In this document: positions 33,390 through 50,400 of the stretch, piece by piece
Layout of the letters: each line of letters starts with the position of its first letter
Numbering within the stretch: position 1 is the stretch's first letter
IMG/VR virus record: IMGVR_UViG_3300029787_000042
Location: 1-57,950 of that record
DNA from: a virus
Strand: one strand, 5' to 3'
DNA: 57,950 nt
Program-made: the position numbers and the translations under genes
Notes under the pieces: model-generated
What the model saw: only the letters and a program-made list of their open reading frames with translations
The model's database searches: none
What the model was told of the DNA's origin: nothing

Positions 33390-33668
33390 TTATTTGTTTA
33401 TCCAAAAAACATTAGCGTCAATCCTCCTTCCTATACCACCTACCTCTTTAGTAGGAGGATTTGGGTCGCATAAAAACAACACCGCTAACCTATCTTGTAT
33501 CCAATCAGGTAATTTGTCTATAGAATCGTACACACCATTGTCTGGTGAGTCAACACAATCCATACCTAAACATGATATTTCAACGGTATTGTTGTCACTA
33601 TGTATACACACGCGATGTACAGTAACATTAGAACCATATTTATATGTAAAGCTGTCACTGTGTAACAT
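33390..33668 (-). CDS. hypothetical protein
   Basis: 92 aa with the ATG at 33668, chosen because AAAGG precedes it by about 7 nt; the frame is open further upstream into the preceding gene. Mixed beta-rich sequence with several cysteines (RVCIHSDNN, then ISCLGMDCVDS) and a C-terminal GGIGRRIDANVFW. Overlaps the 320-aa gene by 14 nt. No family recognised. Lies in a run of unrecognised early ORFs, which is where host-takeover and anti-defence genes usually sit. Confidence 0.6.
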   Translation of the reverse strand: MLHSDSFTYKYGSNVTVHRVCIHSDNNTVEISCLGMDCVDSPDNGVYDSIDKLPDWIQDRLAVLFLCDPNPPTKEVGGIGRRIDANVFWINK

Positions 33669-34617
33669 AAAATATACCTTTGCTGTAACGATAACCAACA
33701 TTGTGTACATACTCACCTAGATCGGTTATAGAAAGCACAGATAATTTACCCTTAATATCTATTGGCAAAGTATCATCTGTATAAGTAGTAAGATCTCCAT
33801 CTAGGTTATTGGCATTTGAATCCCACGGACTAGCATTAAGATCTCTGGTAGGTGTTACATCAAATAATTGCTTCCCCCTGCGCTCATGGATACATACACA
33901 GTAAAAAGTTACAGGGTTTTTATGGTGCTCCATGTACGGTTCGTAGACGTTACGCATAGTGCTTAGTTGGTTAGAAAACTCTTCCGATAAAAACTGATAT
34001 TCAGAATCAGCTAAATGAAACAACTCAGTAAATAATTGAGGTAGGTTTTTATAGTGCCCAACACTTTCCGTAAACGGTTTCGTTGCTTCGTGTAAAGCAC
34101 GTCTGAGAGTATCCTCATGGCTTTTAACACCCTCCGTCACTCCCTCCTTACTGAAGTCTATTATCTCTTTGGCATTGAATGGTGACAAATATCGCTTGGC
34201 ATTACGCACCGCTATGTCTAGCTTACTTGTCATAGCTATATAATGTTGTTCTCTGAGATAATCATACTTGTTGTTTCGTATTTTGCGTGAATAAACGCAA
34301 TACATATTTTTGCCATCACCATCTACTTTGTAATCTCCATAGGCTATCCAACCCCAACACCATTCATCTGTGTCTGTATACACATATATCCTATCGGGAC
34401 GTAGGTTATTCTTTGCGTAGGTCACACCATCTCGTGGATTAAAAACCTTCCCTGCAAACTTGATATAAGGAAATGCTTTACGTACCTCTTTCATAAACAT
34501 AATAACGTATTGGTTGTTACCGTCTTGGCTTAGTTCATCCTCAGTAAACTCACGTATACCCCTACCATCAACCATATCACCTATCTCACTCACCCTTACT
34601 TGTTTTCTCTGATTCAT
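33655..34617 (-). CDS. hypothetical early protein (320 aa)
   Basis: Start at ATG 34617, 7 nt after AGGAG (a GTG one codon earlier is less well spaced). It is aromatic-rich alpha/beta in the first half (FPYIKFAGKVFNPRDGVTYA; DEWCWGWIAYGDYKVDGDGK) and helical in the middle (~155-225). Residues ~45-120 look like a compact globular domain. No catalytic motif identified. Proteins of this look occur upstream of CobS/CobT-like genes in other marine phages as far as I recall, but no function is known to me. Confidence 0.7.
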   Translation of the reverse strand: MNQRKQVRVSEIGDMVDGRGIREFTEDELSQDGNNQYVIMFMKEVRKAFPYIKFAGKVFNPRDGVTYAKNNLRPDRIYVYTDTDEWCWGWIAYGDYKVDGDGKNMYCVYSRKIRNNKYDYLREQHYIAMTSKLDIAVRNAKRYLSPFNAKEIIDFSKEGVTEGVKSHEDTLRRALHEATKPFTESVGHYKNLPQLFTELFHLADSEYQFLSEEFSNQLSTMRNVYEPYMEHHKNPVTFYCVCIHERRGKQLFDVTPTRDLNASPWDSNANNLDGDLTTYTDDTLPIDIKGKLSVLSITDLGEYVHNVGYRYSKGIFYVTQ

Positions 34618-34627
34618 CACTACTCTC

Positions 34628-35551
34628 CTAGTAATCTGTTGTTATAGTAGTAAACCCACCATGCTTATTGACTAACGTATTTACCTTTCTCCTAAAAGCC
34701 TTCGCATCATCGCTTAACTTATGCTCCACCCAAGTATGTGTTTCGTAATCATAAGTTCGTTGACCGTTATCTTGAAGTTGCGCTATACACTCAATGGCTA
34801 AATCAACATACAGAGGGTCATCGGGGGTGTGCAATAACTTCAAAAAGTTTGTTTGAGCAGCTTTTTGAGTCTTTAAGTCTTGCCAATATGAATGGTGTGG
34901 CGCACTTATACCCAAAATCACACACTTATCCCTGCGCTCTTGCCAATTAGTCGGGGTGTTATCCTCTAACAAAGGCAACATATTCCACATCCACTCACAA
35001 AAGTTATTAATAGCTTCTTTGTGTGCTTTTTTGGCTTCTTTATCCACTCTTGGTCGCGGTATGGTATGTTCATCGCCCACCCAAATCCAATCATGTAAAG
35101 GGCTAGGTCTAGTTATCTGTATACCACGTTCATCCTTCAAGTCTGTGCGTTTAGGTAAATATCTTTCTACCCATTCAAAGGGTTTTACATCTCTGTTCGG
35201 TATTTCAATAAACTGCTTGCCTGATTTACCTACAAAGCCTACATTTTGCGGTAAAAACCTATCTAAGAATGAATATATGGATGTGTGCGCCCACTGACCT
35301 ACACCATTTTTAATAGTCACAACTTCATAACCTGAGACCAGTTCCCATGTGATACAGTCCTCACATCTGTCACCCCAATCGGTTATGTTTAAAGAATAGC
35401 AAGTATCTGATAACTTACTAATGCGCTCGAAAGTTCTAGCGCGGTCTGCCATAGGTCGCACATCTTCTTTCCTACCACGTATAGGTTTTATGCTTTCCCA
35501 ATGCGCTTCTACATGTTTAAAACTTTTTAACTTAACATCATACATAGCCAT
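34628..35551 (-). CDS. hypothetical early protein (307 aa)
   Basis: 307 aa with a strong ribosome site (AAGGAG, 8 nt spacing). Trp-rich (HWESIK, WGDRCEDCITWEL, VERYLP) with one C-x2-C pair (RCEDCI) near residue 62-65 and a long helical second half. The start shares a pattern with other phage proteins that open with a short beta strand (AMYDVKLKSFKHV). I do not recognise the family and see no catalytic signature. Cotranscribed with the MoxR/VWA genes upstream. Confidence 0.7.
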   Translation of the reverse strand: MAMYDVKLKSFKHVEAHWESIKPIRGRKEDVRPMADRARTFERISKLSDTCYSLNITDWGDRCEDCITWELVSGYEVVTIKNGVGQWAHTSIYSFLDRFLPQNVGFVGKSGKQFIEIPNRDVKPFEWVERYLPKRTDLKDERGIQITRPSPLHDWIWVGDEHTIPRPRVDKEAKKAHKEAINNFCEWMWNMLPLLEDNTPTNWQERRDKCVILGISAPHHSYWQDLKTQKAAQTNFLKLLHTPDDPLYVDLAIECIAQLQDNGQRTYDYETHTWVEHKLSDDAKAFRRKVNTLVNKHGGFTTITTDY

Positions 35552-35563: not shown

Positions 35564-35767
35564 TTATCCTTGTAATATTCTTGCCCACGCTTGCGCTAGG
35601 CGTTCTCTGTCATCGTCTATCCAAGCAAATTGCTTTCGAGCTTCTGCACTAGCATGTGAGGCTCCAGAGTTCATACTGTCTAGTTTGTACTTCACAGCTT
35701 TCTCCACTTCCTCTACTGCTGTATCCCACTCCATTCGGCGTTTCAAAAAACTATCAAAGTCATCCAT
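35564..35767 (-). CDS. hypothetical small helical protein
   Basis: 67 aa starting at the ATG in TGATG shared with the stop of the VWA gene, so translation is coupled to it. Highly charged and helical (FLKRRMEWDTAVEEVEKAVKY; WIDDDRERLAQAWARILQG). No family recognised. The coupling suggests it works with the VWA protein. Confidence 0.65.
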   Translation of the reverse strand: MDDFDSFLKRRMEWDTAVEEVEKAVKYKLDSMNSGASHASAEARKQFAWIDDDRERLAQAWARILQG

Positions 35768-36987
35768 CACATATCCTCCAGTCTTATGTGTACTGCTTTA
35801 CCTGTGCTTGGCACAGCTTCCTTGTGATCTAAGATTGCCCACAATACTGGACATTCCCAATCACCCCAACTACCAAACAAGTAACCGTCTGTCAATACAA
35901 TGGTCGCTTGTGGTTTGATGTTGTTCTCTTTCATGTATTCGGTAACACATACAACGTCCGTGCCACCACCTCCACGCGGCTTGGTAGACTGCATTAGCTG
36001 ATCTAGTTCGTGCATACCGTACACTTCATCGCGTACTACCGTACAACCCCAATACAGTATGCGCACCTTGTCGGGTCTTACCGTGTCACATATACATTTG
36101 ACCTCAGTAAGCATGGCTGTCAGAGCGCGTTGCTCCACCGAACCTGATGTATCAATAGCTAGTACCAACTCATTGACCTTTTCACTAACACCACTTGGCA
36201 TGTAGATACCCTGACTCATTAGCCTACGGTTAGGTCGAGAGTATGTAGAGTAGTCATTACCCACACACGTAGCATAAATAAACTCACGCAACACCTCACG
36301 CCAATCGACTTGAGGCTGTAACAGTTCATCGAGTGACCTTGCTTGATTTGCGCCCATCTTACCTGCTGACATAGCACCCTGACGTATAGCCTCGTCAATA
36401 TCTCTAGCTAGATCACGCTGTTCATCAGCGGATAGTTCTTGCGCACCTTCAAAATCGTGCTCATCAAAACCACCATTGGTATCTAAAACACCGCTGTCGG
36501 TGTCACCTCCTGACTCGTTATCCTGTTTCTTCTTGCGTAGTATCTTGAACACTTGAGCTGTATCCATACCTCGGTACTGCTCATCGACTAGCCCACCTTC
36601 GGGTAGTTCGGCAAACCGTACACCCCTTTCATCGGGTGGGTTCTCGTCTAAGATTTCAAGGTTGATAACATAGTCCATAGCCATGTTTGCAAGTTGAGCG
36701 TCAATCTCCCATAAGTGTTTCCACGTATGAAGATGTCGATACATCTTGTGTTTGTTCTCGTGAAGAGCCAAACCACGTAACTTAGCATCATTGATACCCT
36801 TGACAAACTCACGTCCATACTTCTCATCACGTCCATTGGTACATGCGGTAGGTATACTCTCATCAATAACCTTGTCACCGATCATCAGCACCCCTGCTAA
36901 CGCTGTGTACTTTTGTTCGCTGATAATAGCGACTATAGCTTTCTCTAGCCGTTGCTCCTCAGTCAACACTCCATTAAGTGTAAGCAT
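35767..36987 (-). CDS. VWA-domain protein with N-terminal HEXXH (DUF2201/CobT-like)
   Basis: 406 aa. Residues 76-80 read HENKH, a zinc-peptidase HEXXH in the N-terminal domain. An acidic linker follows (~155-190). The C-terminal von Willebrand A domain has a complete MIDAS: DTSGS (279-283), T343 in GGGGTD, and D367 in LTDGY. This is the VWA-like metallopeptidase arrangement of DUF2201 families. The gene lies 11 nt downstream of a MoxR-type AAA+ gene; such AAA+/VWA pairs form chaperone- or chelatase-like machines (CobS/CobT, RavA/ViaA). I infer one complex here; its substrate is unknown. Confidence 0.85.
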   Translation of the reverse strand: MLTLNGVLTEEQRLEKAIVAIISEQKYTALAGVLMIGDKVIDESIPTACTNGRDEKYGREFVKGINDAKLRGLALHENKHKMYRHLHTWKHLWEIDAQLANMAMDYVINLEILDENPPDERGVRFAELPEGGLVDEQYRGMDTAQVFKILRKKKQDNESGGDTDSGVLDTNGGFDEHDFEGAQELSADEQRDLARDIDEAIRQGAMSAGKMGANQARSLDELLQPQVDWREVLREFIYATCVGNDYSTYSRPNRRLMSQGIYMPSGVSEKVNELVLAIDTSGSVEQRALTAMLTEVKCICDTVRPDKVRILYWGCTVVRDEVYGMHELDQLMQSTKPRGGGGTDVVCVTEYMKENNIKPQATIVLTDGYLFGSWGDWECPVLWAILDHKEAVPSTGKAVHIRLEDM

Positions 36988-36998
36988 TGTTACTCTCC

Positions 36999-38081
36999 TT
37001 ACTTGTCAGCAGAAAACATGTAATTGTTTTGCATAGCCCATTCGGTGAATAGTTTGTTACTCATCACCAGTGACCGATGCGCGTAGGTATTAGCACGTAC
37101 ACCGTTGGCAAACATACCTTGCGCTTCCTTACTTAGTCGGGGTAGGTATTGCATGAATGGTGTGATCGTATCTTTAGCCATGTTACCTAGCGCACGATAC
37201 ACCACCATACATACTGCCGAGGCAGAGTCAGGTACTTTGGCGTTGGTTGGATCTTGCTTGATAGATTCCCATGATGGTAGTTGATCAGCCAACTTGACGA
37301 ATGCCACCAAGTCCATAGCACCACGATCACCGATAGTACCCATGAGTAAAGCTGTTAGGCTGTGATCATCAAACATGTGCCTCTCCTTGAGTATGTCACT
37401 AGCGGCTTCCAATGATCTTGGCGTAACAAAAGCTGTACGCTGTGCTAGGGGGTGGTTGATGTATGGATTGTCATCGGGGTTCTTCACATCCTCAAAGCCC
37501 TGTAGTATCTGAGGGAACTCACGTACGAATCCCAATACACTAGGCTCCCATTCGTGATTGATACCATACTCAATCAACTCGTCACTGGTAGACTTACGCG
37601 CACGTAGTATGACCATGCGATTACGTGCATGAGGTGGAATAGTATCGCCAACACCCTCTCCACCGAGGTTAGCCGTAGCAAACTGTATGCTACCTTCTGG
37701 CAATTTCTTCGTGCCCACTGTGCGCTCTAGCATAGTAACAAGTGTACCGTTCTTGACTGATTGGTTAGCCTTTGACCATTCATCCCACATAATAATCAAC
37801 GGCTTGCCGTGGTGAATACCGAACTCTTCATTGGGTAAGTATGTGACGTACCCCTCGGTGGTGTTGAGTGATGGTATGCTCAAGTCACCCAGATCTTTGG
37901 TAACACAGTTGAAGTAACAGGGTACATGGTTAGGGAACTTATCCGATAACATCTTTAGTAGTGATGTCTTACCATTACCCATATGCCCTTCGACTAGCAC
38001 ACATCGCTTGTGACCTACCGCACCAATAGCTTGAGCTATCTGGGTAAGCCCCATTTCATACATTTTACTTGCTTTCATCAT
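36999..38081 (-). CDS. MoxR/CobS-like AAA+ ATPase
   Basis: 360 aa. Walker A GHMGNGKTS (32-40), Walker B IIMWDEW (D100/E101), sensor-1 N138 in FATANLGG, and arginine residues in PPHARNRM (149-156). This is the MoxR branch; cyanophage and T4-like phages carry related 'CobS' genes. Two adjacent ATGs (38081, 38078) follow AAGGAG; the second is better spaced. An 18-bp perfect palindrome lies 18 nt upstream. With the VWA protein downstream and DUF3150 upstream it completes the usual three-gene set. Likely remodels a protein complex in the infected cell. Confidence 0.88.
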   Translation of the reverse strand: MMKASKMYEMGLTQIAQAIGAVGHKRCVLVEGHMGNGKTSLLKMLSDKFPNHVPCYFNCVTKDLGDLSIPSLNTTEGYVTYLPNEEFGIHHGKPLIIMWDEWSKANQSVKNGTLVTMLERTVGTKKLPEGSIQFATANLGGEGVGDTIPPHARNRMVILRARKSTSDELIEYGINHEWEPSVLGFVREFPQILQGFEDVKNPDDNPYINHPLAQRTAFVTPRSLEAASDILKERHMFDDHSLTALLMGTIGDRGAMDLVAFVKLADQLPSWESIKQDPTNAKVPDSASAVCMVVYRALGNMAKDTITPFMQYLPRLSKEAQGMFANGVRANTYAHRSLVMSNKLFTEWAMQNNYMFSADK

Positions 38082-38098
38082 TTACTCCTTATCGTTTT

Positions 38099-38116
38099 GT
38101 TATAACATGTTATAAC
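38099..38116. promoter_or_regulatory. 18-bp palindromic regulatory site, copy 1
   Basis: GTTATAACATGTTATAAC is a perfect palindrome made of two GTTATAAC octamers separated by AT. It sits 17 nt upstream of the MoxR start. On the - strand it is followed by AAAACGATAAGGA, closely matching copy 2. It could be an operator, or two overlapping -10-like TATAAC boxes. Confidence 0.65.
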
Positions 38117-38258
38117 TTTCTAATATGCGACCCTTGCGAGTCACGACTTGGTAATACGCTACGCGAGGGGTTCGACCCTTCGGTATCCGCATTTCTTTGT
38201 AGTGTTTGGTGCGCTTGTAGTTGCGCACACGTAACACCGCTTGACCGTAACTATTCAC
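38100..38258 (-). CDS. hypothetical small basic protein
   Basis: 52 aa with a GTG start at 38258, chosen because AAGGAG lies 7 nt upstream and it then begins after the previous gene's stop; the frame is open further upstream. Very basic (RVRNYKRTKHYKEMRIPKGR). The C-terminus is encoded by DNA that includes the 18-bp palindrome (its stop lies inside the site). No family recognised; a nucleic-acid-binding role is possible. Confidence 0.5.
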   Translation of the reverse strand: MNSYGQAVLRVRNYKRTKHYKEMRIPKGRTPRVAYYQVVTRKGRILESYNML

Positions 38259-38269
38259 CGACTCTCTCC

Positions 38270-38473
38270 TTAGTCTTGACAATCGACACATCCCTTACGT
38301 GTCCAGTCAAAAGTACACTGTTCAGTTAGTGGCGTTTCTTCTTCACACTCCACCCACTCTGTATCCATAATATCTGGGTGGTCGAAATCATAGACAGCCT
38401 CACCCATTATGCACTCTGTATCGGCACTATCTTTTACAGTCAGCTTTACTCTCGCGTACATTATCTTAGCCAT
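38270..38473 (-). CDS. hypothetical small acidic protein with Cys-rich end
   Basis: 67 aa from ATG 38473, which has GAGGAG 7 nt upstream; the open frame extends further but without a site. Acidic (YDFDHPDIMDTEWVECEEET) and ending in three cysteines (EQCTFDW, KGCVDCQD) that could bind metal. Overlaps the upstream gene by 8 nt. No family recognised. Confidence 0.55.
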   Translation of the reverse strand: MAKIMYARVKLTVKDSADTECIMGEAVYDFDHPDIMDTEWVECEEETPLTEQCTFDWTRKGCVDCQD

Positions 38474-38780
38474 GATTAATCTCCTCATATTTTCTGAGAG
38501 CTTCTTGAACAATAATAAACATTTTTATATCCATCCACGCATTTTGGATATCATCTGTTGGCTCATCTGCAAACTCAACCTCTCTTGTTATGACATCGTC
38601 TATTATTTTAACTTGATCAGAAATAGCCATCGAACATATACTTATTACTTCATCTTTGTTTTGGGCGTATCCTTTATAGTAAGCAAACTCAACTATCTTA
38701 AGTAATGCGTCAGATAGCCCGATACCTTCTTCGTTTTCACGCATAACGTTGCATTCTAAGAGTACTTCTTCAATGTCCAT
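38466..38780 (-). CDS. hypothetical acidic helical protein
   Basis: 104 aa, acidic and almost entirely helical by composition (EEVLLECNVMRENEEG; VKIIDDVITREVEFADEP). It begins 2 nt after the DUF3150 gene stop with a GGAGAT site. No family recognised. Part of the palindrome-led small-gene operon. Confidence 0.62.
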   Translation of the reverse strand: MDIEEVLLECNVMRENEEGIGLSDALLKIVEFAYYKGYAQNKDEVISICSMAISDQVKIIDDVITREVEFADEPTDDIQNAWMDIKMFIIVQEALRKYEEINHG

Positions 38781-38782
38781 GA

Positions 38783-39679
38783 TTACATCTCCAGTGATGG
38801 TAGTGTTGCGATAACTTTGTCCACCGCACGTTTGGTTTCGGCACGGAGAAACGCATCTTCACGCAATGCGTCAGGCGTTATTCCACGTAGCGTATCCTCT
38901 AGCTTCATAGCCATCGCAGTCATCTGCCGGTCATTTGTAACATTACACACGTTAAGTAGTTCTACTATGTCGGTCACGTTGTCAACCAAAGTATCACGAA
39001 AGATCTTCTTAGTATCACCCTTGGCGTAGTCTAAACGCTCAGACATATTACTCAGCACTTTGTAAGTGCGTTGCCATACGTCATTCATAGCAGAGTGCAG
39101 TTGCCTGTTGTAATACTCATTGTAATGATCTTCGAGTACTTGCTTCTGGTCGTTGCCTACATCCACACGAAAGTCACCCGCATCTGGCAATGGTATGTAA
39201 GATATGTTGAACGCGAACTTGCGAGAGATAGATTCTGTGGTCGGGTAATCGTCACGTACAAACAGATTACCTAGTCGTGCTTGCGCCCTGCTGATCTCCC
39301 AATCATAGTTGCTGATAAATGACTGTGCCATACCCTCGAACTCGTTTTGTAGCTCAGTCATCTGTTGGTGATATTTGAAATATGACTCTGTCGGTAGTAA
39401 CCGCATACCTGTATCGCTCCACGGCATTGTGGATTTGTAGTGTGTGTTGCGCGCGTTGGCGGTGAATTTGTGTATGGCAGTCAGCTCGTCACAGTTACCT
39501 AGTAACTTCTTATTGACTGATGCCGTACCTTTCTCTGCCCAGTTTTGATCAGTCACTTCGACTGATGCTGTCTTGTCCTTCTTGCGACCTGTCCATTGGC
39601 TAACCTGTAACTCTACTAGCATGGCGCTAGACCCGATAGATGGTGCTTCGACTTTAGGTGTTACGCTTGTATTGTTCAT
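38783..39679 (-). CDS. DUF3150 protein
   Basis: 298 aa. The N-terminal strand-like LVELQVSQWTGRKKDK followed by a long helical body fits the DUF3150 family, which is typically found next to CobS/MoxR ATPase and VWA genes in phages and plasmids. Residues ~60-230 are strongly helical (NEFEGMAQSFISNYDWEISR). AAGGAG site before the ATG. It is likely a structural or adaptor component of the MoxR-VWA machine. Assignment is by recognition plus the conserved neighbourhood. Confidence 0.75.
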   Translation of the reverse strand: MNNTSVTPKVEAPSIGSSAMLVELQVSQWTGRKKDKTASVEVTDQNWAEKGTASVNKKLLGNCDELTAIHKFTANARNTHYKSTMPWSDTGMRLLPTESYFKYHQQMTELQNEFEGMAQSFISNYDWEISRAQARLGNLFVRDDYPTTESISRKFAFNISYIPLPDAGDFRVDVGNDQKQVLEDHYNEYYNRQLHSAMNDVWQRTYKVLSNMSERLDYAKGDTKKIFRDTLVDNVTDIVELLNVCNVTNDRQMTAMAMKLEDTLRGITPDALREDAFLRAETKRAVDKVIATLPSLEM

Positions 39680-40075: not shown

Positions 40076-40200
40076 ATTTTGAGTTGTGGTAACAAGTTAC
40101 CGTGTAAAAGTGGACAGGATAAATCTCTCAGCCACATTACCATTATACAGGAGTGACAGCTTATGTCAAGTTATGGGTATACGTGTCAGGGAGTGGGGAG

Positions 40201-40600
40201 AAGTGTATTGTAATGTATTGTAATGTAATGTTACATAGTTGTGGTCGGTAAGTCATTGATATATCTACAATGTTACAAAGTTACATTTTACAGGGGAAAA
40301 TAGGTCGCTCGATCACCCCCAAATAAATTTGTAACAATGTAGAAAATTCTATGAGAGTTAAATACTATTTTGAAAATGTAACATTATAAGTATGTATTAA
40401 TAAAAACATATAAATAGATAAGATCTGATACTTTGACTATGGCAAACCTGCACAAACCTGCACATTATCTGATACGATAACGCACTAAAATATAATGTTA
40501 CATTTTGCCCTTAAATTTTGTAACATTATGTAACATTAGGGGGGGTATTTTGTAACATTGTATATTTATCAACGACTTACGTTGTAACAAAAGGCTCAAC
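40201..40600. other. non-coding AT-rich zone with TGTWACA cluster, candidate replication origin
   Basis: The 40037-40730 gap holds no convincing gene. TGTTACA/TGTAACA heptamers occur at 40229, 40271, 40330, 40378, 40496, 40519, 40529, 40551 and 40583, with a related AGTTACA at 40279. An exact 10-bp tandem, AAACCTGCAC, lies at 40444-40453 and 40454-40463. Dense short repeats in AT-rich DNA at the point where early and late transcription diverge resemble an iteron-type origin. The role is inferred. Confidence 0.5.
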
Positions 40601-40620
40601 GCGAAGCTGGAACTGGTATC
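40585..40620 (+). repeat. 36-bp direct repeat, copy A
   Basis: Begins TAACAAAAGGCTCAACGCG and ends AACTGGTATC. It matches copy B (40640-40675) at all but about four positions in the middle. The start-to-start distance is 55 bp. Only two copies exist, so it is not a CRISPR array. Confidence 0.85.
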
Positions 40621-40625
40621 ACAAT

Positions 40626-40643
40626 GTTATAACGTGTTATAAC
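40626..40643. promoter_or_regulatory. 18-bp regulatory site, copy 3
   Basis: GTTATAACGTGTTATAAC, octamers exact, spacer GT. It lies between the two 36-bp repeats and its last four bases (TAAC) form the beginning of copy B. It is not immediately upstream of a gene: the next leftward start is at 40036, and the nearest rightward gene starts at 41669. Confidence 0.6.
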
Positions 40644-40675
40644 AAAAGGCTCAACGCGGACTAGGAACTGGTATC
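40640..40675 (+). repeat. 36-bp direct repeat, copy B
   Basis: TAACAAAAGGCTCAACGCG, a variable seven-base middle, then AACTGGTATC. It abuts palindrome copy 3 and lies just left of the 40697-40722 terminator. Confidence 0.85.
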
Positions 40676-40696
40676 GTAGGTACTTTTTGATGGGCG

Positions 40697-40722
40697 AAAA
40701 AAAAGCCCCACCGAAGTGGGGC
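40697..40722 (-). terminator. strong rho-independent terminator after the 200-aa gene
   Basis: On the - strand GCCCCA-CTTCGG-TGGGGC (40705-40722) forms a stable stem whose loop closes as a UUCG-type tetraloop, followed by eight T. It separates the 40731-41333 gene from the origin-like zone and the operon further left, so those genes need their own promoter. Confidence 0.9.
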
Positions 40723-40730
40723 ATATTTGG

Positions 40731-41333
40731 TTAGTGAATTGGATCTGGTTGAAGTAGTGCGACAATCTTAGCTCTTAACTTGCTAATCTCCAGAGCGGTA
40801 TCTTCTGGCAGATTGTTAAGACACCAATTCTGGAGGTCGGTCTCTTTCTTGATTGCCTTCATCGCTAGTGCATTCGCCTCATCAACTACCTTATCGCCAG
40901 TCTTTGGCATAGATGGTTGCTGTGGTGCTCTCTCTGTTTTGGGCTTTGGAATCTGCCTATTCTTTAGATCGCGTTTAAACGCTGACATATAAGCACCGAT
41001 GGATTGTTGAACCTCGCGTTTGTCTATCTTACCTTGATCACTTAGCGCCTTAGTAGATGCGCCCAATAGATTGCGTTTAGTAGCACTAAACCCTGACACC
41101 ACGGCATCTTTCAATGCGTCATATAGTTCGGTGGTAGCTGTAGATTCGCCAGATTTACCATTGGGACTAATAAAGTCTGTCCAAAACATACCATCAGCAA
41201 TCAACTGATCAACTGCCTTGGTCTGTATACCTTCAGACTTGATAGCTAATTTAACTGCGTTACTTATTGATTCCTTGCCTTTGTTAGTCAGGCGCGTAGG
41301 TACTGCTCTTACTTCATTTATATATGTACTCAT
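40731..41333 (-). CDS. hypothetical protein, monocistronic, beside the origin-like zone
   Basis: 200 aa. Helical N-terminal domain (~1-120; NKGKESISNAVKLAIKSEGI; KDAVVSGFSATKRNLLGAST), basic Pro-rich linker (~122-145; RQIPKPKTERAPQQPSMPK) and a C-terminal helix pair (~146-200). It has its own terminator and an 18-bp palindrome 100 nt upstream. No family recognised. Its isolated unit next to repeats makes a replication-initiator or regulatory role plausible, for instance binding the palindromes, but no HTH is clear. Composition is close to that of its neighbours. Confidence 0.7.
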   Translation of the reverse strand: MSTYINEVRAVPTRLTNKGKESISNAVKLAIKSEGIQTKAVDQLIADGMFWTDFISPNGKSGESTATTELYDALKDAVVSGFSATKRNLLGASTKALSDQGKIDKREVQQSIGAYMSAFKRDLKNRQIPKPKTERAPQQPSMPKTGDKVVDEANALAMKAIKKETDLQNWCLNNLPEDTALEISKLRAKIVALLQPDPIH

Positions 41334-41668
41334 GTTTATATACTCTTTAGTTATTTACACTTCAACGTTATTGCTGAAGATGGTCACATAATAACAAGTT
41401 TACACATAAATACAATAGATAGCTTACAGAAAGTTATAACATGTTATAACAATCGACAATCTGACACTATTCGATACCTACCCCCTCCCCACCCCCCGCG
41501 CGACACATATGGGACTCTGTCAGTCTATATATTACTAATTCACACAAACAAATCGTATTTTTATGAGTTCAGACCCCCACCCCCTCTATATAAGAAACCC
41601 CCCACCTTGTTTTTGAAACACAATTGTAAAAAATTTTTTGTACAGTTATTCTGGGTTTAGGAGCTGCT
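41334..41668. promoter_or_regulatory. divergent intergenic control region
   Basis: 335 bp between the leftward 200-aa gene and the rightward late genes, with no gene seen. It holds palindrome copy 4 (41433-41450), two C-rich clusters (41481-41497 and 41574-41603), a TATATAAG element between C-runs (about 41587), and a good ribosome site (TTTAGGAG) for the 41669 gene. Promoters in both directions are expected here, but no single -35/-10 pair is convincing. Confidence 0.5.
41433..41450. promoter_or_regulatory. 18-bp palindromic regulatory site, copy 4
   Basis: GTTATAACATGTTATAAC, identical to copy 1. Copy 1 read on + and this copy read on - also share the next five bases (TTTCT), so the site is present in inverted orientation relative to copy 1. 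It is 100 nt upstream of the 41333 start. Confidence 0.65.
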
Positions 41669-42142: not shown

Positions 42143-42748
42143 ATGACTTTACAACTAGAACCAGAGTTAGGTGTACCTATTTCAGATAAAATTTTACGTG
42201 TCGATCTAAAAGAACGCGTAAAATCAGCGGCTAACACCTCTTTAGAACTAGCAGAACACGATTTAGATCTAGAACCTACTAAGGATGATAAAGATGTAGC
42301 TGCTAAATTAGCTATAGCTTATGCAGACGACCCCGAAACTACCTCTAAAAAGGTAAACAATACCCGTGCTTCTACCCTAACACCTGCCTCATTGGTGTTA
42401 ACTAACAATATTTTGCAAGAGTTTGGGCAATCAGTGGTAGATAGTGCCCTACAAGTACGCCATTTAGTGACTAATAAGTTGTTATTAGAGACAGAAAACC
42501 CTGATCCACGGGTAAGAATCCGCGCATTAGAGCTTTTAGGTAAAGTTTCTGATGTTGGTTTGTTTGCAGAGAAGTCAGAAATGGTAATAACACACCAATC
42601 AACGGATGATTTAAAGGCAAAGTTACGTGATAAGTTAGAAAAGTTAGTAAACCCTCCTGAAGAAATAGAGGAAGCTATAATTATTGATGGTGAACCTCTT
42701 GACGTAGACACGGAATTAGATTCTAACGGCGAAGAATACGATGACTAA
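42143..42748 (+). CDS. terminase small subunit (putative)
   Basis: 201 aa, overlapping the large terminase by 8 nt, the standard order. The acidic N-terminal third is followed by a helical region and a conserved-looking block RIRALELLGKVSDVGLFAEK, then THQSTDDLKAKLRDKLEKL, patterns I associate with small-terminase-like proteins. The C-terminus is acidic. It should recognise packaging sites on the phage DNA. Assignment rests on position and this block; no clear N-terminal HTH was seen. Confidence 0.7.
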   Translation: MTLQLEPELGVPISDKILRVDLKERVKSAANTSLELAEHDLDLEPTKDDKDVAAKLAIAYADDPETTSKKVNNTRASTLTPASLVLTNNILQEFGQSVVDSALQVRHLVTNKLLLETENPDPRVRIRALELLGKVSDVGLFAEKSEMVITHQSTDDLKAKLRDKLEKLVNPPEEIEEAIIIDGEPLDVDTELDSNGEEYDD

Positions 42749-44294
42749 ACATAGTAAAGAATTTTCTGAAGAAGAAATACAAAGAATGTTAGACAATCTG
42801 GATGCTTTTAGCCAAGAAGAGGTAATAGAGATTAACCGCTTGGTAGATGAACTAGCTATTCGCAGAGAAAACGCTTTGGCATACAATGATTTAATTGAAT
42901 TTTGTAAAAGAATGATGCCAGAATTCTTAGTAGGCAAGCACCACAGGATATTAGCTAACATGTTAATGTCTATAGAACAGGGAAACAAAGACAGGGTATG
43001 TGTAAACATACCACCACGTCATGGCAAGTCTCAATTAGTATCTATTTTCTTTCCTGCATGGTATTTAGGCAGAAATCCCGACAAAAAAGTGATGATGGTG
43101 TCTCACACAACAGATTTAGCTGTAGATTTTGGACGAAAAGTGCGTAATCTTATCTCTACCGCTGATTATAAGACCATATTTCCTACTGTAGCCCTTGCTG
43201 TAGACTCTAAATCAGCAGGAAGGTGGAATACAAACTCAGGTGGAGAGTATTATGCCTGTGGTGTTGGCTCTGCGCTAGCTGGTAGGGGAGCAGATTTATT
43301 ACTTGTAGATGATCCGCACTCTGAGCAAGACGTGATTAACGGAAACTTTTCGGTATTTGAGAAAGCATACGAGTGGTACACGTTCGGTGCTCGGACACGA
43401 CTAATGCCCGCAGGTAAAGTAGCAATAATACAAACTCGTTGGCATATGGACGACCTGACGGGACGTGTTGTTAAAGATATGGCGCAAAATGAGAGATCTG
43501 ATCAGTTTGAAGTAATTGAATTTCCTGCTATATTAGAAGTAGAAGACAAAAAAACTAAAAAACCTGTGGAGAAACCGTTATGGCCTGAGTTTTTTGATTT
43601 AGAGGCACTAAAACGCACAAAAGCGTCAATGCCTGTATTTCAATGGAACGCACAATACCAACAGCAACCCACCGCCGAAGAGGCTGCTTTAGTAAAAAGA
43701 GAGTGGTGGAATATATGGGAACAAGATAGGCCACCGTCTTGTGAATATATTATAATGTCTTTAGATGCGGCGGCAGAAAAACACAACCGAGCGGATTATA
43801 CAGCATTAACTACGTGGGGGGTATTCCTAAATGAGGAGACTTCTGCGTATAATATAATATTGCTAAACAGTATAAAAGAGCGTATAGAGTTCCATGAGCT
43901 AAAAGAACTGGCTATGCAAGAGTATACAGATTGGGAACCAGACTCGTTTATAGTAGAAAAAAAGAGTTCTGGTGTTGCATTGTATCAAGAAATGCGACGA
44001 ATGGGATTACCTGTGTCGGAGTACACTCCTCATAGAGGGTCGGGGGATAAGTTAGCACGTTTAAACTCCGTATCTGACATGGTGCAATCAGGGTTAGTTT
44101 GGGTTCCGCCCTCTAGATGGGCAGAAGAAGTGGTAGAAGAGATAGCGGGGTTTCCGTTTATGAGTCACGATGACTTGGTAGATTCTACTGTAATGGCATT
44201 AATGAGGTTTAGACAAGGTGGGTTTGTACGTTTACCTACGGATGAGCCAGAAGATATTCAATATTTTAAGCAGCGAAGAGGCGGCTACTATTAA
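42741..44294 (+). CDS. terminase large subunit
   Basis: 517 aa. ATPase: Walker A PPRHGKS (91-97), Walker B LLLVDDP (D190/D191), and the coupling-type motif QTRWHMDDL (231-239). Nuclease: SLDAA (D342), FIVEKKSSG (E406), and SHDDLVD (D477, D478, D481), an RNase-H-like triad. It drives DNA into the procapsid and cuts the concatemer. Size is typical. The packaging mode (headful or cos) cannot be read from the sequence alone. Confidence 0.93.
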   Translation: MTKHSKEFSEEEIQRMLDNLDAFSQEEVIEINRLVDELAIRRENALAYNDLIEFCKRMMPEFLVGKHHRILANMLMSIEQGNKDRVCVNIPPRHGKSQLVSIFFPAWYLGRNPDKKVMMVSHTTDLAVDFGRKVRNLISTADYKTIFPTVALAVDSKSAGRWNTNSGGEYYACGVGSALAGRGADLLLVDDPHSEQDVINGNFSVFEKAYEWYTFGARTRLMPAGKVAIIQTRWHMDDLTGRVVKDMAQNERSDQFEVIEFPAILEVEDKKTKKPVEKPLWPEFFDLEALKRTKASMPVFQWNAQYQQQPTAEEAALVKREWWNIWEQDRPPSCEYIIMSLDAAAEKHNRADYTALTTWGVFLNEETSAYNIILLNSIKERIEFHELKELAMQEYTDWEPDSFIVEKKSSGVALYQEMRRMGLPVSEYTPHRGSGDKLARLNSVSDMVQSGLVWVPPSRWAEEVVEEIAGFPFMSHDDLVDSTVMALMRFRQGGFVRLPTDEPEDIQYFKQRRGGYY

Positions 44295-44305
44295 GAGGCT
44301 AGGTC

Positions 44306-46768
44306 ATGGCGATTGAAAAAGGTATATATTCTGCTCCCAAAGGAATAGAAGAAGAAATAGATATAGCATCGGCAGATAAAACAGTCGATCAAGAACTAGA
44401 AATTGAAATTGTAAATCCCGACATGGTTACTTTAGATGATGGTTCTGTAGAAATTACTATTTTACCTACAAATAACATCATGGGAAGTTTTAGTAGTAAT
44501 ATTGCTGAAGAGTTAGATGAAGATGTACTAGCTGTGTTAGCTGATGATTTATCAGGAATGGTATCTTCTGATGTAGATAGTCGAAAAGATTGGGCTGACA
44601 CATACGTCAAAGGGTTGGATATTGTAGGATTTAAGTACGAAGAGCGTACTGAACCTTGGGATGGTGCTTGTGGAGTAAACTCTACTGTGCTATCTGAAGC
44701 AGTTATCCGTTTTCAAGCGGAGACTATGAGTGAGACATTTCCCTCATCTGGCCCTGTAAGAGTAAAAATACTAGGCGAAGAAACAAAAGAAAAAGAAGAA
44801 GCTGCTAACCGCGTTAAAGCTGACATGAATTACCAACTAACTGAAGAAATGGTTGAGTATCGTCCTGAACATGAGCGTATGTTGTATAGTCTAGGACTTG
44901 CAGGATCAGCGTTTAAGAAGGTTTATTTTGACCCTAACATTGGTAGGCAAGTAGCTGTATACGTTCCAGCAGAAGACGTTATTGTGCCTTATGGGGCTTC
45001 TAATATAGAGTCTGCCGAACGTGTAACTCATGTCATGCGTAAGACTAAAAACGACATACGTAAGCTACAATTAAGTGGTTTTTACCGCGATATAGATTTA
45101 GGTGAACCAGAATCATTTCATACTGACATTGAAGAAAAGAAAGCTGAAGACGGTGGTTTTTCTTTAACAGATGATGATCGTTATTCTTTATATGAGATAC
45201 ATGCAGATTTAACTATTGATGGGTTAGATGATGGCGATGATGTAGCTAAACCTTACATTGTTACTATGGAGCGTGGATCTAACGAAATATTGTCTATAAG
45301 ACGTAATTGGAACGAAGATGACGAGTTGATGTTAAAGCGTCAACACTTTGTACATTATGTATATATTCCCGGATTTGGTTTCTACGGTCTTGGTCTGATC
45401 CACATAATTGGTGGGTATGCTAGAGCAGGAACCTCGCTCATACGACAGCTAGTAGATGCTGGTACATTGTCAAATCTTCCGGGGGGTCTGAAGGCTCGCG
45501 GACTACGAATTAAAGGCGATGATACTCCTATAGAGCCGGGAGAGTGGAAAGATGTAGACGTACCATCTGGCAGCATTAGAGAGAATATAATGCCGCTTCC
45601 ATACAAAGAACCAAGCCAAACATTACTTGCGTTACTTAATCAAATAACTACTGAAGGCCGCCGTCTAGGTGCTATTAGTGATATGGACATATCTGATATG
45701 TCTGCTAATGCTCCTGTGGGAACTACACTAGCGTTGTTAGAAAGAACTCTAAAACCTATGGCTGCGGTACAAGCTCGTGTCCATTATGCCATGAAGCAAG
45801 AGTTTAAAATGCTTAAAAATATAATGGCGGAATACGCTCCTGAAGAATATGATTACCAGCCTTCACGAGGTGAAATATCTGCGCGTCAAGCAGACTATAT
45901 GATGGTTGATGTAATACCTGTTAGTGATCCTAACAGCTCTACTATGGCTCAACGTGTAGTACAGTATCAAGCTGTATTGCAGATGTCTCAACAAGCTCCG
46001 CAGATATATAATCTGCCGCAACTGCATCGTCAAATGATAGAAGTCATGGGTATAAAGAACGCAGACAAACTTGTACCTACAAAAGACGATACAGCACCTA
46101 CAGATCCTGTAAGCGAAAATATGAACGCGCTAACTGGTACCCCCATAAAAGCGTTCTTATATCAAGACCACGAAGCACACATTGCTACGCACCAAGCGTT
46201 TATGCAAGACCCTATGGTTGCACAAACTATTGGACAAAACCCACAAGCACAACAGATTATGGCATCTCTAAATGCGCATATCGCAGAGCATCTTGGGTTT
46301 AGATACCGTAAACAAATGGAAGAAAAGTTAGGCGCTACATTACCACCACCAAACGAAGAGTTGCCAGAAGAAATTGAGATTCAATTAGCACGGCTCGTTG
46401 CCGAAGGTGGCAAGCAGCTTACTCAACAACATCAACAAGAAGCAGCGCAAAAACAAGCGCAAGCACAACAGCAAGATCCTATGTTCCAGCTACAACAAGC
46501 AGAACTACAGGTTAAGCAACAAGAAGTACAACGTAAGGCTCAGAAAGATCAAGCCGATACGCAAGTTAAACAAGCAGAACTTCAGCGAAAGACCCAAAAG
46601 GATCAAGCTGATGCAACTATAGATCTAGAACAACTCAAGCTTGATAGGCAAGAGTTGGAAATAGATGCCCAGAAAGCGGGCGCAAAACTAGCTGCGGACA
46701 GAAGAGTGGCTAGCAATAAACTTGACCTTGATCTTATGAGAGAGGTTACTAACAAACGTAAGGAATAA
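44306..46768 (+). CDS. portal protein
   Basis: 820 aa, long like podoviral portals. It follows terminase directly. Diagnostic-looking segments: DSRKDWADTYVKGLDIVGFK, then EPWDGACGVNSTVLSEAVIR, SGPVRVKILG, and YVPAEDVIVPYGASN, which I know from marine podovirus portals. The C-terminal ~120 residues are a Gln/Lys-rich helix with repeats (VKQAELQRKTQKDQADA), probably a barrel- or coil-forming tail projecting into the head. It forms the dodecameric vertex for packaging and ejection. Confidence 0.88.
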   Translation: MAIEKGIYSAPKGIEEEIDIASADKTVDQELEIEIVNPDMVTLDDGSVEITILPTNNIMGSFSSNIAEELDEDVLAVLADDLSGMVSSDVDSRKDWADTYVKGLDIVGFKYEERTEPWDGACGVNSTVLSEAVIRFQAETMSETFPSSGPVRVKILGEETKEKEEAANRVKADMNYQLTEEMVEYRPEHERMLYSLGLAGSAFKKVYFDPNIGRQVAVYVPAEDVIVPYGASNIESAERVTHVMRKTKNDIRKLQLSGFYRDIDLGEPESFHTDIEEKKAEDGGFSLTDDDRYSLYEIHADLTIDGLDDGDDVAKPYIVTMERGSNEILSIRRNWNEDDELMLKRQHFVHYVYIPGFGFYGLGLIHIIGGYARAGTSLIRQLVDAGTLSNLPGGLKARGLRIKGDDTPIEPGEWKDVDVPSGSIRENIMPLPYKEPSQTLLALLNQITTEGRRLGAISDMDISDMSANAPVGTTLALLERTLKPMAAVQARVHYAMKQEFKMLKNIMAEYAPEEYDYQPSRGEISARQADYMMVDVIPVSDPNSSTMAQRVVQYQAVLQMSQQAPQIYNLPQLHRQMIEVMGIKNADKLVPTKDDTAPTDPVSENMNALTGTPIKAFLYQDHEAHIATHQAFMQDPMVAQTIGQNPQAQQIMASLNAHIAEHLGFRYRKQMEEKLGATLPPPNEELPEEIEIQLARLVAEGGKQLTQQHQQEAAQKQAQAQQQDPMFQLQQAELQVKQQEVQRKAQKDQADTQVKQAELQRKTQKDQADATIDLEQLKLDRQELEIDAQKAGAKLAADRRVASNKLDLDLMREVTNKRKE

Positions 46769-46770
46769 GT

Positions 46771-46968
46771 ATGGCTACTACCGTCTTTGACGTGCTAACA
46801 AAACAAATCGAGGATGCTACATTCTCAGCAAAAGAGTTTCTTGAAAATGGTTCGGCTACAGATTACGCGAACTATCGAGAAGTGGTTGGTTTGATACGAG
46901 GTCTTCAAACTAGCTTATCTTTCGTAAAAGACCTTTCGCGAAATTATATGGATGATGACAATGACTGA
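46771..46968 (+). CDS. hypothetical small protein
   Basis: 65 aa, 2 nt after the portal stop, overlapping the GroES-like gene by 17 nt. Mostly helical (TKQIEDATFSAKEFLENGSA; YREVVGLIRGLQTSLSFVKD) and ending in MDDDND. Small helical ORFs of this kind commonly follow the portal in marine podoviruses. A role in head assembly is plausible; no motif shows it. Confidence 0.7.
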   Translation: MATTVFDVLTKQIEDATFSAKEFLENGSATDYANYREVVGLIRGLQTSLSFVKDLSRNYMDDDND

Positions 46969-47341
46969 TTTAACACCAAACCCCGAAGTAATTGAAGAAG
47001 AGTTAGAACATCAAATACCTATTCCTGTAGGTTATAGGATTTTGATAGCAATGCCTGAAGTAGAAGATACTTACGGCGATAGCGGAATTATCAAATCAAG
47101 TAAGGAAATGCATCACGATTATATTATGTCTACTATTGGACTTGTATTAGATATAGGTGGACAAGCTTATTCGGATAAAGACCGTTTCCCTGATGGCCCT
47201 TGGTGCAAGGTAGGAGATTATGTCATGTTTCGTGCTAACACAGGAACAAGATTTAAAGTAGGTGGTGTCGAGTATCGGTTAATGAATGATGACTCGGTTG
47301 AAGCAATAGTTAACGATCCTCGTGGCGTTACACGAGTGTAA
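46952..47341 (+). CDS. GroES-like co-chaperonin
   Basis: 129 aa. The Cpn10 fold is recognisable: PVGYRILIAMPE near the start, a mobile-loop-like segment with YGDSGIIK, STIGLVLDIGG, then the KVGDYVMFRANTGT, VGGVEYRLM and EAIV strands. The loop carries GII as the hydrophobic GroEL-binding tripeptide (IVL in E. coli). It likely redirects host GroEL to fold the capsid protein, as T4 gp31 does. Encoded between portal and capsid, in keeping with that job. The N-terminal ~20 residues are an extra acidic extension. Confidence 0.82.
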   Translation: MMTMTDLTPNPEVIEEELEHQIPIPVGYRILIAMPEVEDTYGDSGIIKSSKEMHHDYIMSTIGLVLDIGGQAYSDKDRFPDGPWCKVGDYVMFRANTGTRFKVGGVEYRLMNDDSVEAIVNDPRGVTRV

Positions 47342-47351
47342 GGAGAATAAC

Positions 47352-48356
47352 ATGGGATTTCAAAAAGTTGAGTATAGTTTTCCTGATGAAATTGAGGATA
47401 AGAAACCAGAAATTGAAGTAGAAAAATCTACTGCGGTAGAGATTGATTTATCTGGTAAACAACCTAAAGAAAAACTTGTCGAAAAAACACCTAAGGAAGA
47501 AGAGTTGGAAATTGAAGTTGTAGATGATACTCCGAAAGCAGATAGAAATCGTACACCTTCTAAACCTCCTGAAGATGTTACGGACGAAGAGTTAGAAGAT
47601 TATTCTGAAAAAGTTCAAAATCGTATTAAACATTTTAGCAAAGGTTATCACGATGAACGTAGGGCTAAAGAACAGGCTTTACGTGAACGACAAGAGCTAG
47701 AAAGTTTTGCTAAAAAGTTAGTTGATGAAAACAAAAACCTAAAAAGCAATGTAGAAAAAAATCAGGAAGCGTTGCTTGAACAAGCTAAGAAAAACTCAGC
47801 TATAGAAATGCTTTCTGCCAAACGTTCATACAAACAAGCGTATGAAGCTGGAGACGCAGATAAATTAATAGAGGCGCAAGAAAAACTAACTAATGCCAAA
47901 ATAAAAGCAGATAAGTTATCTAATTTTAAAGCTGAGCCTTTACAAGAAGAAAAGAATGAGGTACAAATACCTACACAAGAGTCCGCCCCCAAGACTGTTG
48001 TTGACTCTAGAGCCTCAGAATGGGCAGAAAATAACCCGTGGTTTGGTTCTGATAAAGAAATGACAGGTTTTGCTATGGGGCTGCATGAACGACTTGTTGA
48101 AGAGGGTGTAGACCCTGCTAGTGATGAATACTACGAGACTATTAATACTCGTATGCAGAAAGTGTTTCCCGAAAATTTCGGGGATGAGCCAGTAACAAAG
48201 ACGAAACGGCAAGCAAATGTGGTTGCACCCGCTACGCGGAGCACCTCACCTAAAAAGGTGAAATTAACGCAGACACAAGTAGCTATTGCTAAAAAACTTG
48301 GAGTTCCACTGGATTTATACGCCAAAAAGGTTGCTGAAGAGATGAGGAAAATATAA
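47352..48356 (+). CDS. scaffold-like protein
   Basis: 334 aa from ATG 47352 (AAGGAG, 6 nt); an upstream in-frame ATG at 47322 is inside the GroES gene and lacks a site. Acidic, largely disordered N-terminus (~1-75), long charged coiled coil (~85-200; FAKKLVDENKNLKSNVEKN) and a basic C-terminal segment (VAPATRSTSPKKVKLTQTQV). Position before the capsid gene and the charge layout fit a scaffolding protein that guides procapsid assembly and is removed. No protease gene was identified. Confidence 0.72.
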   Translation: MGFQKVEYSFPDEIEDKKPEIEVEKSTAVEIDLSGKQPKEKLVEKTPKEEELEIEVVDDTPKADRNRTPSKPPEDVTDEELEDYSEKVQNRIKHFSKGYHDERRAKEQALRERQELESFAKKLVDENKNLKSNVEKNQEALLEQAKKNSAIEMLSAKRSYKQAYEAGDADKLIEAQEKLTNAKIKADKLSNFKAEPLQEEKNEVQIPTQESAPKTVVDSRASEWAENNPWFGSDKEMTGFAMGLHERLVEEGVDPASDEYYETINTRMQKVFPENFGDEPVTKTKRQANVVAPATRSTSPKKVKLTQTQVAIAKKLGVPLDLYAKKVAEEMRKI

Positions 48357-48805: not shown

Positions 48806-48831
48806 TTTAATTTTTATAAAGGATAGATATT

Positions 48832-49446: not shown

Positions 49447-49450
49447 TTAT

Positions 49451-50356: not shown

Positions 50357-50372
50357 GGTAACGTGTTTTACT

Positions 50373-50396
50373 AAGGGAGCTTCGGCTCCCTTTTTT
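50373..50396 (+). terminator. rho-independent terminator after the capsid gene
   Basis: GGGAGC-TTCG-GCTCCC (50375-50390) followed by six T: a 6-bp GC stem with a UUCG tetraloop. It limits read-through from the highly expressed capsid gene. Confidence 0.92.
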
Positions 50397-50400
50397 ATGT

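What the first reader, a model, noticed from the sequence alone, without database searches (positions are those of the whole stretch)
35564..39679. Phage-encoded DUF3150 / MoxR AAA+ / VWA-HEXXH machine under a shared regulatory site
A MoxR-type ATPase (intact Walker A/B), a VWA protein with full MIDAS and an additional HENKH zinc motif, a coupled 67-aa protein and a DUF3150 protein form one module. MoxR-VWA pairs are known chaperone/chelatase-like machines, and CobS-like genes are known in cyanophages, but their phage role is unsolved. Both halves here start behind the same 18-bp site, and the HEXXH raises the possibility that the VWA partner is a protease loaded by the ATPase.
Basis: partly seen in the sequence, partly recalled or inferred. 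Interest (0 to 1): 0.65.

Follow-up and report, generated by a model that had tools for sequence, protein, structure and literature searches.

The report
Phage-plasmid ATPase module with protease-like arm
A marine phage carries three neighbouring genes for an ATP-driven protein machine with a zinc-protease-like arm; the ATPase and arm were already known in phages, but the third protein, shared with conjugative plasmids, and the absence of the set from phages with the same heads suggest that it serves genome establishment or host takeover, not head building.

Summary
35564-39679 encodes a MoxR-clade AAA+ ATPase, a DUF2201 protein (N-terminal zincin-like domain with HENKH, C-terminal VWA with MIDAS) and a DUF3150 protein. 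HExxH and MIDAS occur in 53/53 full-length viral relatives and in 9/9 distant phages sampled, including N4. All three genes lie together in 37 of 55 related viral loci, in two gene orders, under purifying selection. The 18-bp site is real, but has four copies and is lineage-specific.

The ATPase/VWA pair is not new: it is N4 gp24/gp25, and a metallopeptidase-VWA plus MoxR was described in jumbo phages (PMC7824862), with a virion-assembly proposal.

What I add: DUF3150 is a recurrent third partner. The same trio sits on conjugative plasmids (Burkholderia, Simplicispira, IncHI1/IncHI2), there also with a CobT/CoxE-like VWA that again has HExxH, whereas cobaltochelatase CobT lacks it (0/15). Four phages sharing this phage's capsid and/or terminase lack the whole module. 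Plasmids make no virions, so a head-assembly role is unlikely.

Best reading: an ATP-driven substrate-remodelling machine of the replication/takeover stage, whose zincin arm clips the client. Proteolysis is inferred, not shown; a non-catalytic metal site is a serious rival (chromosomal relatives can have HHxxH).

The parts
35767..36987 (-). 406-aa protein: N-terminal zincin-like domain (DUF2201_N; H76-E77-x-x-H80, D105xxxN109) and C-terminal VWA domain (DUF2201; MIDAS D279xSxS, T343, D367)
   Evidence: Pfam; conservation; AlphaFold model; VWA fold Z 12.9; M48/minigluzincin profile matches
36999..38081 (-). 360-aa MoxR-clade AAA+ ATPase (Walker A G35xG37K38, Walker B D100E101, N138, R222)
   Evidence: phrog_1297 1e-42; invariant motifs; hhalign 97.8% to AAA_5/CobS-like plasmid ATPases; AAA_5 in 17/31 members
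38783..39679 (-). 298-aa DUF3150 protein, the recurrent third partner
   Evidence: Pfam 1.4e-10; near MoxR/VWA in 37/55 related viral loci, in two gene orders; hhalign 97.5% to IncHI-type DUF3150
35564..35770 (-). 67/68-aa ORF overlapping the VWA stop codon; lineage-specific accessory
   Evidence: only in window, L002, L003
38100..38780 (-). three small ORFs (63, 80, 104 aa) between DUF3150 and MoxR; the 80- and 104-aa ones found in none of the 55 other loci, the 63-aa one in seven
38099..38116 (.). 18-bp site GTTATAACATGTTATAAC, 17 nt ahead of the MoxR start
   Evidence: same place in L002/L003
40058..40075 (.). 18-bp site GTTATAACACGTTATAAC, ahead of the first small gene upstream of DUF3150
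   Evidence: same place in L002/L003
40626..40643 (.). third copy of the 18-bp site, in a non-coding stretch
41433..41450 (.). fourth copy of the 18-bp site, ahead of the 200-aa ORF 40731-41333(-)
   Evidence: L002 has one ahead of the same gene
40142..40169 (-). perfect sigma-70-type promoter TTGACA-16-TATAAT reading toward DUF3150
34628..35551 (-). 307-aa protein of unknown family, conserved downstream of the module in 26 related viral loci
33655..34620 (-). 321-aa protein of unknown family, conserved downstream of the module in 29 related viral loci

Best explanation
A three-protein ATP-driven remodelling machine used during DNA replication or host takeover. The MoxR AAA+ ring supplies force; the VWA domain, through its MIDAS metal, holds an acidic residue of a client or adaptor (as Midasin does); DUF3150 is the adaptor or scaffold that chooses the client; and the N-terminal zincin arm, with Zn held by H76, H80 and probably D105 and water activated by E77, clips the client once presented. 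Shown: the genes, motifs, co-conservation, selection, sharing with plasmids, and absence from head-sharing phages. Inferred: complex formation, zinc binding, proteolysis, the client, and the timing.
For: HExxH and MIDAS invariant in 53/53 viral homologues, and HExxH plus MIDAS beside or near a MoxR gene in 9/9 distant phages, N4 included. DUF3150 close by in 38 of 56 loci incl. window, staying linked after a rearrangement (order D-M-V 35, M-V-D 3). Same trio on plasmids; in 299 Pseudomonadota genomes the six with DUF3150 all have a CobT-like VWA gene near it, and five of six also a MoxR-like ATPase, one of these on a separate short contig; 5/6 of those VWA proteins have HExxH although they belong to a different VWA lineage. 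N-domain profile matches M48 peptidases and MJ1213. A functionally telling fold neighbour of the VWA part is the Midasin MIDAS domain (Foldseek E 1.3e-5). The module lies in the leftward replication arm with primase/helicase, SSB, SNF2 helicase, nucleases and DNA polymerase A; N4 gp24/25 are middle genes (PMC4193335). Four phages sharing terminase, and three of them also capsid and portal, lack all three genes in whole records.
Against: No activity, structure of the complex or client is known. Chromosomal DUF2201 relatives can lose the catalytic Glu (HHxxH in 4/20) and B12 CobT lacks HExxH (0/15), so the scaffold can work without catalysis. N4-type phages have the pair without a detectable DUF3150, so DUF3150 is not obligatory. 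The third zinc ligand is inferred from conservation only. The tail genes of the window phage are unlike those of the module-less relatives, so a tail role is not excluded.
Confidence: 0.5

Rival explanations
1. A remodelling or chaperone machine in which the HExxH site binds metal for structure or regulation and does not cut: the work is done by MoxR and VWA alone.
For: Chromosomal DUF2201 proteins next to MoxR with HHxxH keep both His but not the Glu (4/20); true CobT works with no HExxH at all; the well-studied MoxR/VWA systems, such as RavA-ViaA and CbbQO, are remodellers, not proteases (general knowledge; PMC3893208 and PMC4660213 abstracts).
Against: The Glu is retained in every phage homologue tested (53/53, 9/9) and on all plasmids sampled, across two VWA lineages, which a merely structural site would not require.
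Confidence: 0.3
2. A virion-assembly chaperone with peptidolytic processing of structural proteins, as Iyer et al. 2021 proposed for jumbo phages.
For: PMC7824862; MoxR-VWA p618/p892 is assigned to tail development of archaeal virus ATV (PMC4124505).
Against: Plasmids with no virion carry the trio; phages sharing capsid (63-67% identity), portal and terminase lack it, and DSL-LC04 shares the terminase and lacks it; the genes lie in the replication arm on the strand opposite to head genes; N4 gp24/25 are middle, not late, genes.
Confidence: 0.1
3. A metal chelatase (CobST-like) that serves cofactor synthesis.
For: Distant similarity of the ATPase to CobS (plasmid homologue, TIGR01650 35.6 bits) and of plasmid VWA partners to CobT (PF06213 1.3e-11).
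Against: The TIGR01650 score is far below its cut-off of 558; the window VWA protein does not match CobT; the CobT-like plasmid proteins differ from B12 CobT by HExxH.
Confidence: 0.04
4. A counter-defence or conflict device related to MoxR-vWA ternary systems.
For: Presence on phages and conjugative plasmids, patchy distribution, a MoxR-vWA-third-protein layout like that in PMC7159879.
Against: No PADLOC match to the window proteins; the third protein is DUF3150, not VMAP or iSTAND; core-gene status of the pair in N4-like phages is unlike optional counter-defence genes.
Confidence: 0.06

Closest known systems
N4 gp24/gp25 pair (Schitoviridae core genes)
   Same: MoxR-type ATPase next to a DUF2201 protein with HExxH and MIDAS; function unknown
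   Different: No DUF3150 gene detectable in N4; the window phage's nearest terminase relatives are pelagiphages and related phages, not N4
MoxR plus metallopeptidase-VWA pair of group 2.2 jumbo phages (Iyer et al. 2021, PMC7824862)
   Same: Same two-protein design and the same idea of a peptidase arm
   Different: Here with DUF3150 and in a 58-kb phage; evidence here points away from the virion role proposed there
MoxR-DUF3150-VWA cluster of IncHI1/IncHI2 plasmids and pALVIN02
   Same: Same three parts, homologous ATPase and DUF3150 (hhalign 97.8% and 97.5%), HExxH at the N-terminus of the VWA protein
   Different: VWA protein is a 600-670-aa CobT/CoxE-like lineage, alignable only over the VWA domain (82.9%)
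Cobaltochelatase CobS/CobT
   Same: AAA+ MoxR-clade ATPase and VWA partner; the CobT N-domain family (PF06213) matches the pALVIN02 partner
   Different: CobT lacks HExxH in 15/15; no CobT match for the window protein
RavA-ViaA and CbbQO
   Same: MoxR ATPase with VWA partner that remodels a client
   Different: No HExxH domain (from general knowledge); no sequence match of the window ATPase in the PDB
FtsH
   Same: AAA+ motor coupled to an HExxH zinc protease
   Different: One polypeptide and a different AAA+ clade; analogy only, from general knowledge

Membership tests
MoxR-clade AAA+ ATPase | Walker A and Walker B, sensor-1 Asn | tested here: met
   G35, G37, K38, D100, N138 invariant and E101 above 90% in 31 sequences
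MoxR-clade AAA+ ATPase | Similarity to AAA_5/AAA_3 or CobS-like profiles | tested here: met
   Window protein alone gives no Pfam match over cut-off, but 17/31 family members hit AAA_5 and 7 AAA_3; hhalign to plasmid AAA_5 proteins 97.8%, E 1.1e-12
MoxR-clade AAA+ ATPase | Helix-2 insert | not tested
   No structure of the ATPase was predicted
DUF2201 (PF13203 + PF09967) | Both Pfam domains over the curated cut-off | tested here: met
   78.1 bits (cut-off 23.2) and 57.4 bits (cut-off 26.4)
DUF3150 (PF11348) | Pfam score over cut-off | tested here: met
   41.4 bits, cut-off 24.9, but only profile positions 4-158 of 257
Zincin metallopeptidase | HExxH motif, conserved | tested here: met
   53/53 viral homologues, 9/9 distant phages
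Zincin metallopeptidase | Zincin fold (strands, active-site helix, third-ligand helix) | tested here: inconclusive
   Predicted secondary structure fits (strands 39-58, helix 67-82 with HExxH, helix 97-115 with D105/N109); weak profile matches to M48 and MJ1213; fold search covered mainly the VWA part
Zincin metallopeptidase | Proteolytic activity | not testable with these tools
   Needs purified protein
Cobaltochelatase CobST | CobT family match of the VWA subunit | tested here: not met
   No PF06213 or PF11775 match for the window protein at E 0.1
Cobaltochelatase CobST | CobN catalytic subunit in the same genome | not tested
   No search with a CobN model was made
MoxR-vWA ternary conflict systems (VMAP, iSTAND, FtsH, beta-propeller) | Third component of one of those four types | tested here: not met
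   The third protein matches DUF3150 over cut-off and no VMAP/iSTAND-type model; no PADLOC match
RavA-ViaA | RavA-type ATPase with LARA domain, ViaA partner | tested here: inconclusive
   No PDB sequence match of the ATPase at E 0.1; absence at sequence level only

The most novel reading that the evidence does not exclude
Phages and conjugative plasmids share a split, three-part ATP-dependent metalloprotease (MoxR motor, DUF3150 adaptor, zincin-VWA blade), built with two far-diverged VWA lineages; the cobaltochelatase subunit CobT descends from such a blade whose active site has died.
Probability: 0.3. Interest if true: 0.78.

Novelty: new variant of a known kind. Interest (0 to 1): 0.52.

Why it matters
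This ATPase/VWA pair is a core gene pair of N4-like phages and occurs in hundreds of phage records, yet its job is unknown and its VWA member is widely labelled an HNH endonuclease, apparently in error. Finding DUF3150 as a third partner shared with IncHI and other conjugative plasmids, and finding phages with the same heads but no module, moves the question from virion assembly to genome establishment or host takeover. It also makes it testable in E. coli, with N4 or a laboratory IncHI plasmid. If the CobT comparison holds, it links a vitamin B12 enzyme subunit to a protease-like ancestor.

Tried and rejected
DUF3150 model: no PDB match below E 0.35; among viral models mainly other DUF3150-like or unnamed proteins; fold and function open. 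The D175/H177 pair, invariant in the first viral alignment, is not kept in N4 or plasmid members, so it was dropped as a zinc-ligand candidate. Searching cellular genomes with a DUF3150 alignment failed for lack of conserved blocks. DUF3150 and DUF2201 literature: 0 and 4 open papers; the four were judged by title only and none is on function. The CRISPRi-ART phage screen paper does not mention N4, MoxR or von Willebrand proteins in its main text. The two conserved downstream genes matched no family. An early regular expression wrongly suggested loss of MIDAS in some chromosomal relatives; they have DTSSS.
Full report
What is there. The window is a virus record of 57,950 bases. On the minus strand, in reading order, lie a DUF3150 gene (38783-39679), three small ORFs, a MoxR-type ATPase (36999-38081), a 406-aa VWA protein (35767-36987) and an overlapping 67/68-aa ORF. 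Pfam assigns DUF2201_N plus DUF2201 to the VWA protein and DUF3150 to the upstream protein, all over the curated cut-offs. PHROGs places the pair in phrog_1314 and phrog_1297. The three large genes evolve under purifying selection (dN/dS 0.09-0.18 to the closest relative).

Conservation of the motifs. A scan of viral contigs gave 55 relatives. Among full-length proteins, window included, HExxH is present in 53/53 and the MIDAS motif DxSxS in 53/53; composition would give 0.017 HExxH per protein. H76, E77, H80, D105, N109 and the MIDAS residues are invariant in the alignment. Nine distant reference phages (N4, Presley, FV3, Bacillus phage G, Thermus phiFa, Callisto, a Rhizobium phage, a roseophage, an Erwinia jumbo phage) all have HExxH, MIDAS and a MoxR gene within 8 kb.

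Co-occurrence. With the window counted, 38 of 56 loci have all three genes: 35 in the order DUF3150-MoxR-VWA and 3 with DUF3150 moved behind VWA. Twelve have the pair without a detectable DUF3150; ten of these (L044-L055) are divergent and N4-like in this respect. Six have the VWA gene alone, most of them next to a contig end. The pair is therefore the core and DUF3150 a frequent third partner.

Plasmids. DUF3150 finds 770 plasmids, 715 of them predicted conjugative; 39 matches cover at least 80% of the query, and the many Enterobacteriaceae matches are weak by BLAST (E 0.06-0.5), though annotated as DUF3150 and confirmed by profile. Opening six plasmids shows the trio each time: Simplicispira, Rhodovastum and Burkholderia with DUF2201 partners, and IncHI1 pMAK1, an IncHI2 plasmid and pALVIN02 with a 600-670-aa partner. 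Profile comparison supports homology of the IncHI-type ATPase and DUF3150 with those of the window (97.8% and 97.5%), while the VWA proteins align only over the VWA domain (82.9%). The long partner still starts with a domain that carries HEAGH. In 299 Pseudomonadota genomes DUF3150 occurs in six, always near a long VWA protein and, in all but one (L107, where none was matched), with a MoxR-like ATPase; five of the six VWA proteins have HExxH, and the sixth reads HEIVCH. Linkage is looser in some: G148 is spread over two short contigs, in G272 the ATPase lies about 4.5 kb from DUF3150, and in G245 the VWA gene lies about 5 kb away.

CobT. The long partners match the CobT family in part (pALVIN02, PF06213 1.3e-11). 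Fifteen of fifteen chromosomal CobT proteins have no HExxH; the aligned place reads like DSxALK or DALALR. The mobile-element proteins also keep an ED-x-R-x-E stretch downstream. The simplest reading, which is inference, is that the CobT N-domain is a zincin whose active site was lost; gain in the mobile-element proteins is not excluded without a tree. Conversely, one lineage of chromosomal DUF2201 proteins has HHxxH (4 of 20), which keeps the two His ligands but not the catalytic Glu. This is the main reason not to call the phage protein a protease outright.

Is it a zincin? A profile of the N-domain finds M48 peptidases (3c37, E 3.9e-4), BepA (about 4e-3) and the minigluzincin MJ1213 (8e-3) in the PDB sequences, aligned over the HExxH helix and, for the M48 proteins, the region before it (that MJ1213 is a minigluzincin is from general knowledge). 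The AlphaFold model (mean pLDDT 78) has strands at 39-58, the HExxH helix at 67-82 and a second helix at 97-115 bearing D105 and N109. D105 as third ligand is inferred from conservation and position. The C-terminal domain is a VWA fold (Z 12.9, rmsd 2.6 over 138 residues), and Midasin MIDAS domains are among the best Foldseek matches (E 1.3e-5), which suggests client holding through the MIDAS metal.

Where it acts. The module lies in the leftward arm together with a primase/helicase-like protein, an ssDNA-binding protein, an SNF2 helicase, a PD-(D/E)XK exonuclease, DNA polymerase A and an endonuclease, while terminase, portal and capsid read rightward. In N4 the same pair is transcribed with the middle genes and belongs to the 14-gene core (PMC4193335; also PMC7650795). 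Pelagiphages HTVC023P and HTVC027P and phage 023Pt_psg01 share capsid (63-67% identity), portal and terminase with the window phage, and DSL-LC04 shares its terminase; none of the four has any of the three genes in its whole record. Plasmids with the trio make no virions. These facts speak against head assembly and for a role in replication, establishment or takeover. The large proteins that are probably tail genes of the window phage (5499-22481) are mostly not shared with those relatives, so a tail role remains possible.

The 18-bp site. GTTATAACNNGTTATAAC has four perfect copies, all between 38.1 and 41.5 kb, against 0.04 expected. The same places carry it in L002 and L003, and no other relative has it. 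The half-site is itself a palindrome repeated at a 10-bp step, which resembles tandem operator boxes; this is a local regulatory feature, not a mark of the module.

What is known and what is new. The pair is known: N4 gp24/gp25, and Iyer et al. 2021 describe a MoxR with a metallopeptidase-VWA in jumbo phages and propose virion assembly with proteolysis (PMC7824862). The only viral MoxR-VWA system with experimental data that I found is ATV p618/p892, assigned to tail development (PMC4124505). What I did not find described in the open literature is DUF3150 as a third partner (0 papers), its sharing with plasmids, the retention of HExxH in two VWA lineages next to DUF3150, and the contrast with CobT. 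The library searched lacks most subscription papers, so priority cannot be claimed firmly.

Verdict. Observation confirmed; interpretation partly supported. The module is a new variant of a known kind, with an unsolved function that now has a sharper, testable hypothesis.

Noticed in passing
window 35767-36987; N4 gp25 (L082:3165-4307): phrog_1314 is labelled 'HNH endonuclease', and the label sits on N4 gp25 and many other phage records; Pfam shows no HNH in the window member, only DUF2201_N and a VWA-like domain. It looks like a widely propagated misannotation.
   Followed up: partly
window 38099, 40058, 40626, 41433: Site GTTATAACNNGTTATAAC is a tandem of an 8-bp palindrome at a 10-bp step; four perfect copies, with copies ahead of the same genes in L002/L003. 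The regulator is unknown.
   Followed up: partly
window 40080-40730: About 650 non-coding bases with short A/T-rich repeats, a perfect TTGACA-16-TATAAT promoter (40169-40142, minus) and a hairpin terminator (40705-40722): possible regulatory or origin region between the two gene arms.
   Followed up: no
L091-L105 versus L060, L061, L064, L106-L111: B12-pathway CobT lacks HExxH (0/15) while CobT-like proteins next to DUF3150 mostly have it; the CobT N-domain may be a dead zincin.
   Followed up: partly
L113, L114, L115, L117: A chromosomal DUF2201 lineage next to MoxR has HHxxH instead of HExxH, with MIDAS intact.
   Followed up: partly
window 33655-35551: Two proteins of unknown family (321 and 307 aa) are conserved downstream of the module in most relatives of the window clade, but were not found on the plasmids or in MinM2.
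   Followed up: partly
window 33390-33716: A 108-aa ORF matches the profile of the neighbouring 321-aa protein family (E about 1e-18) and overlaps its end; a similar second ORF follows in most relatives.
   Followed up: no
window 42741-54870: Terminase, portal and capsid genes resemble pelagiphages HTVC023P/HTVC027P (capsid up to 67% identity), while most of the replication arm does not: a mosaic genome.
   Followed up: partly
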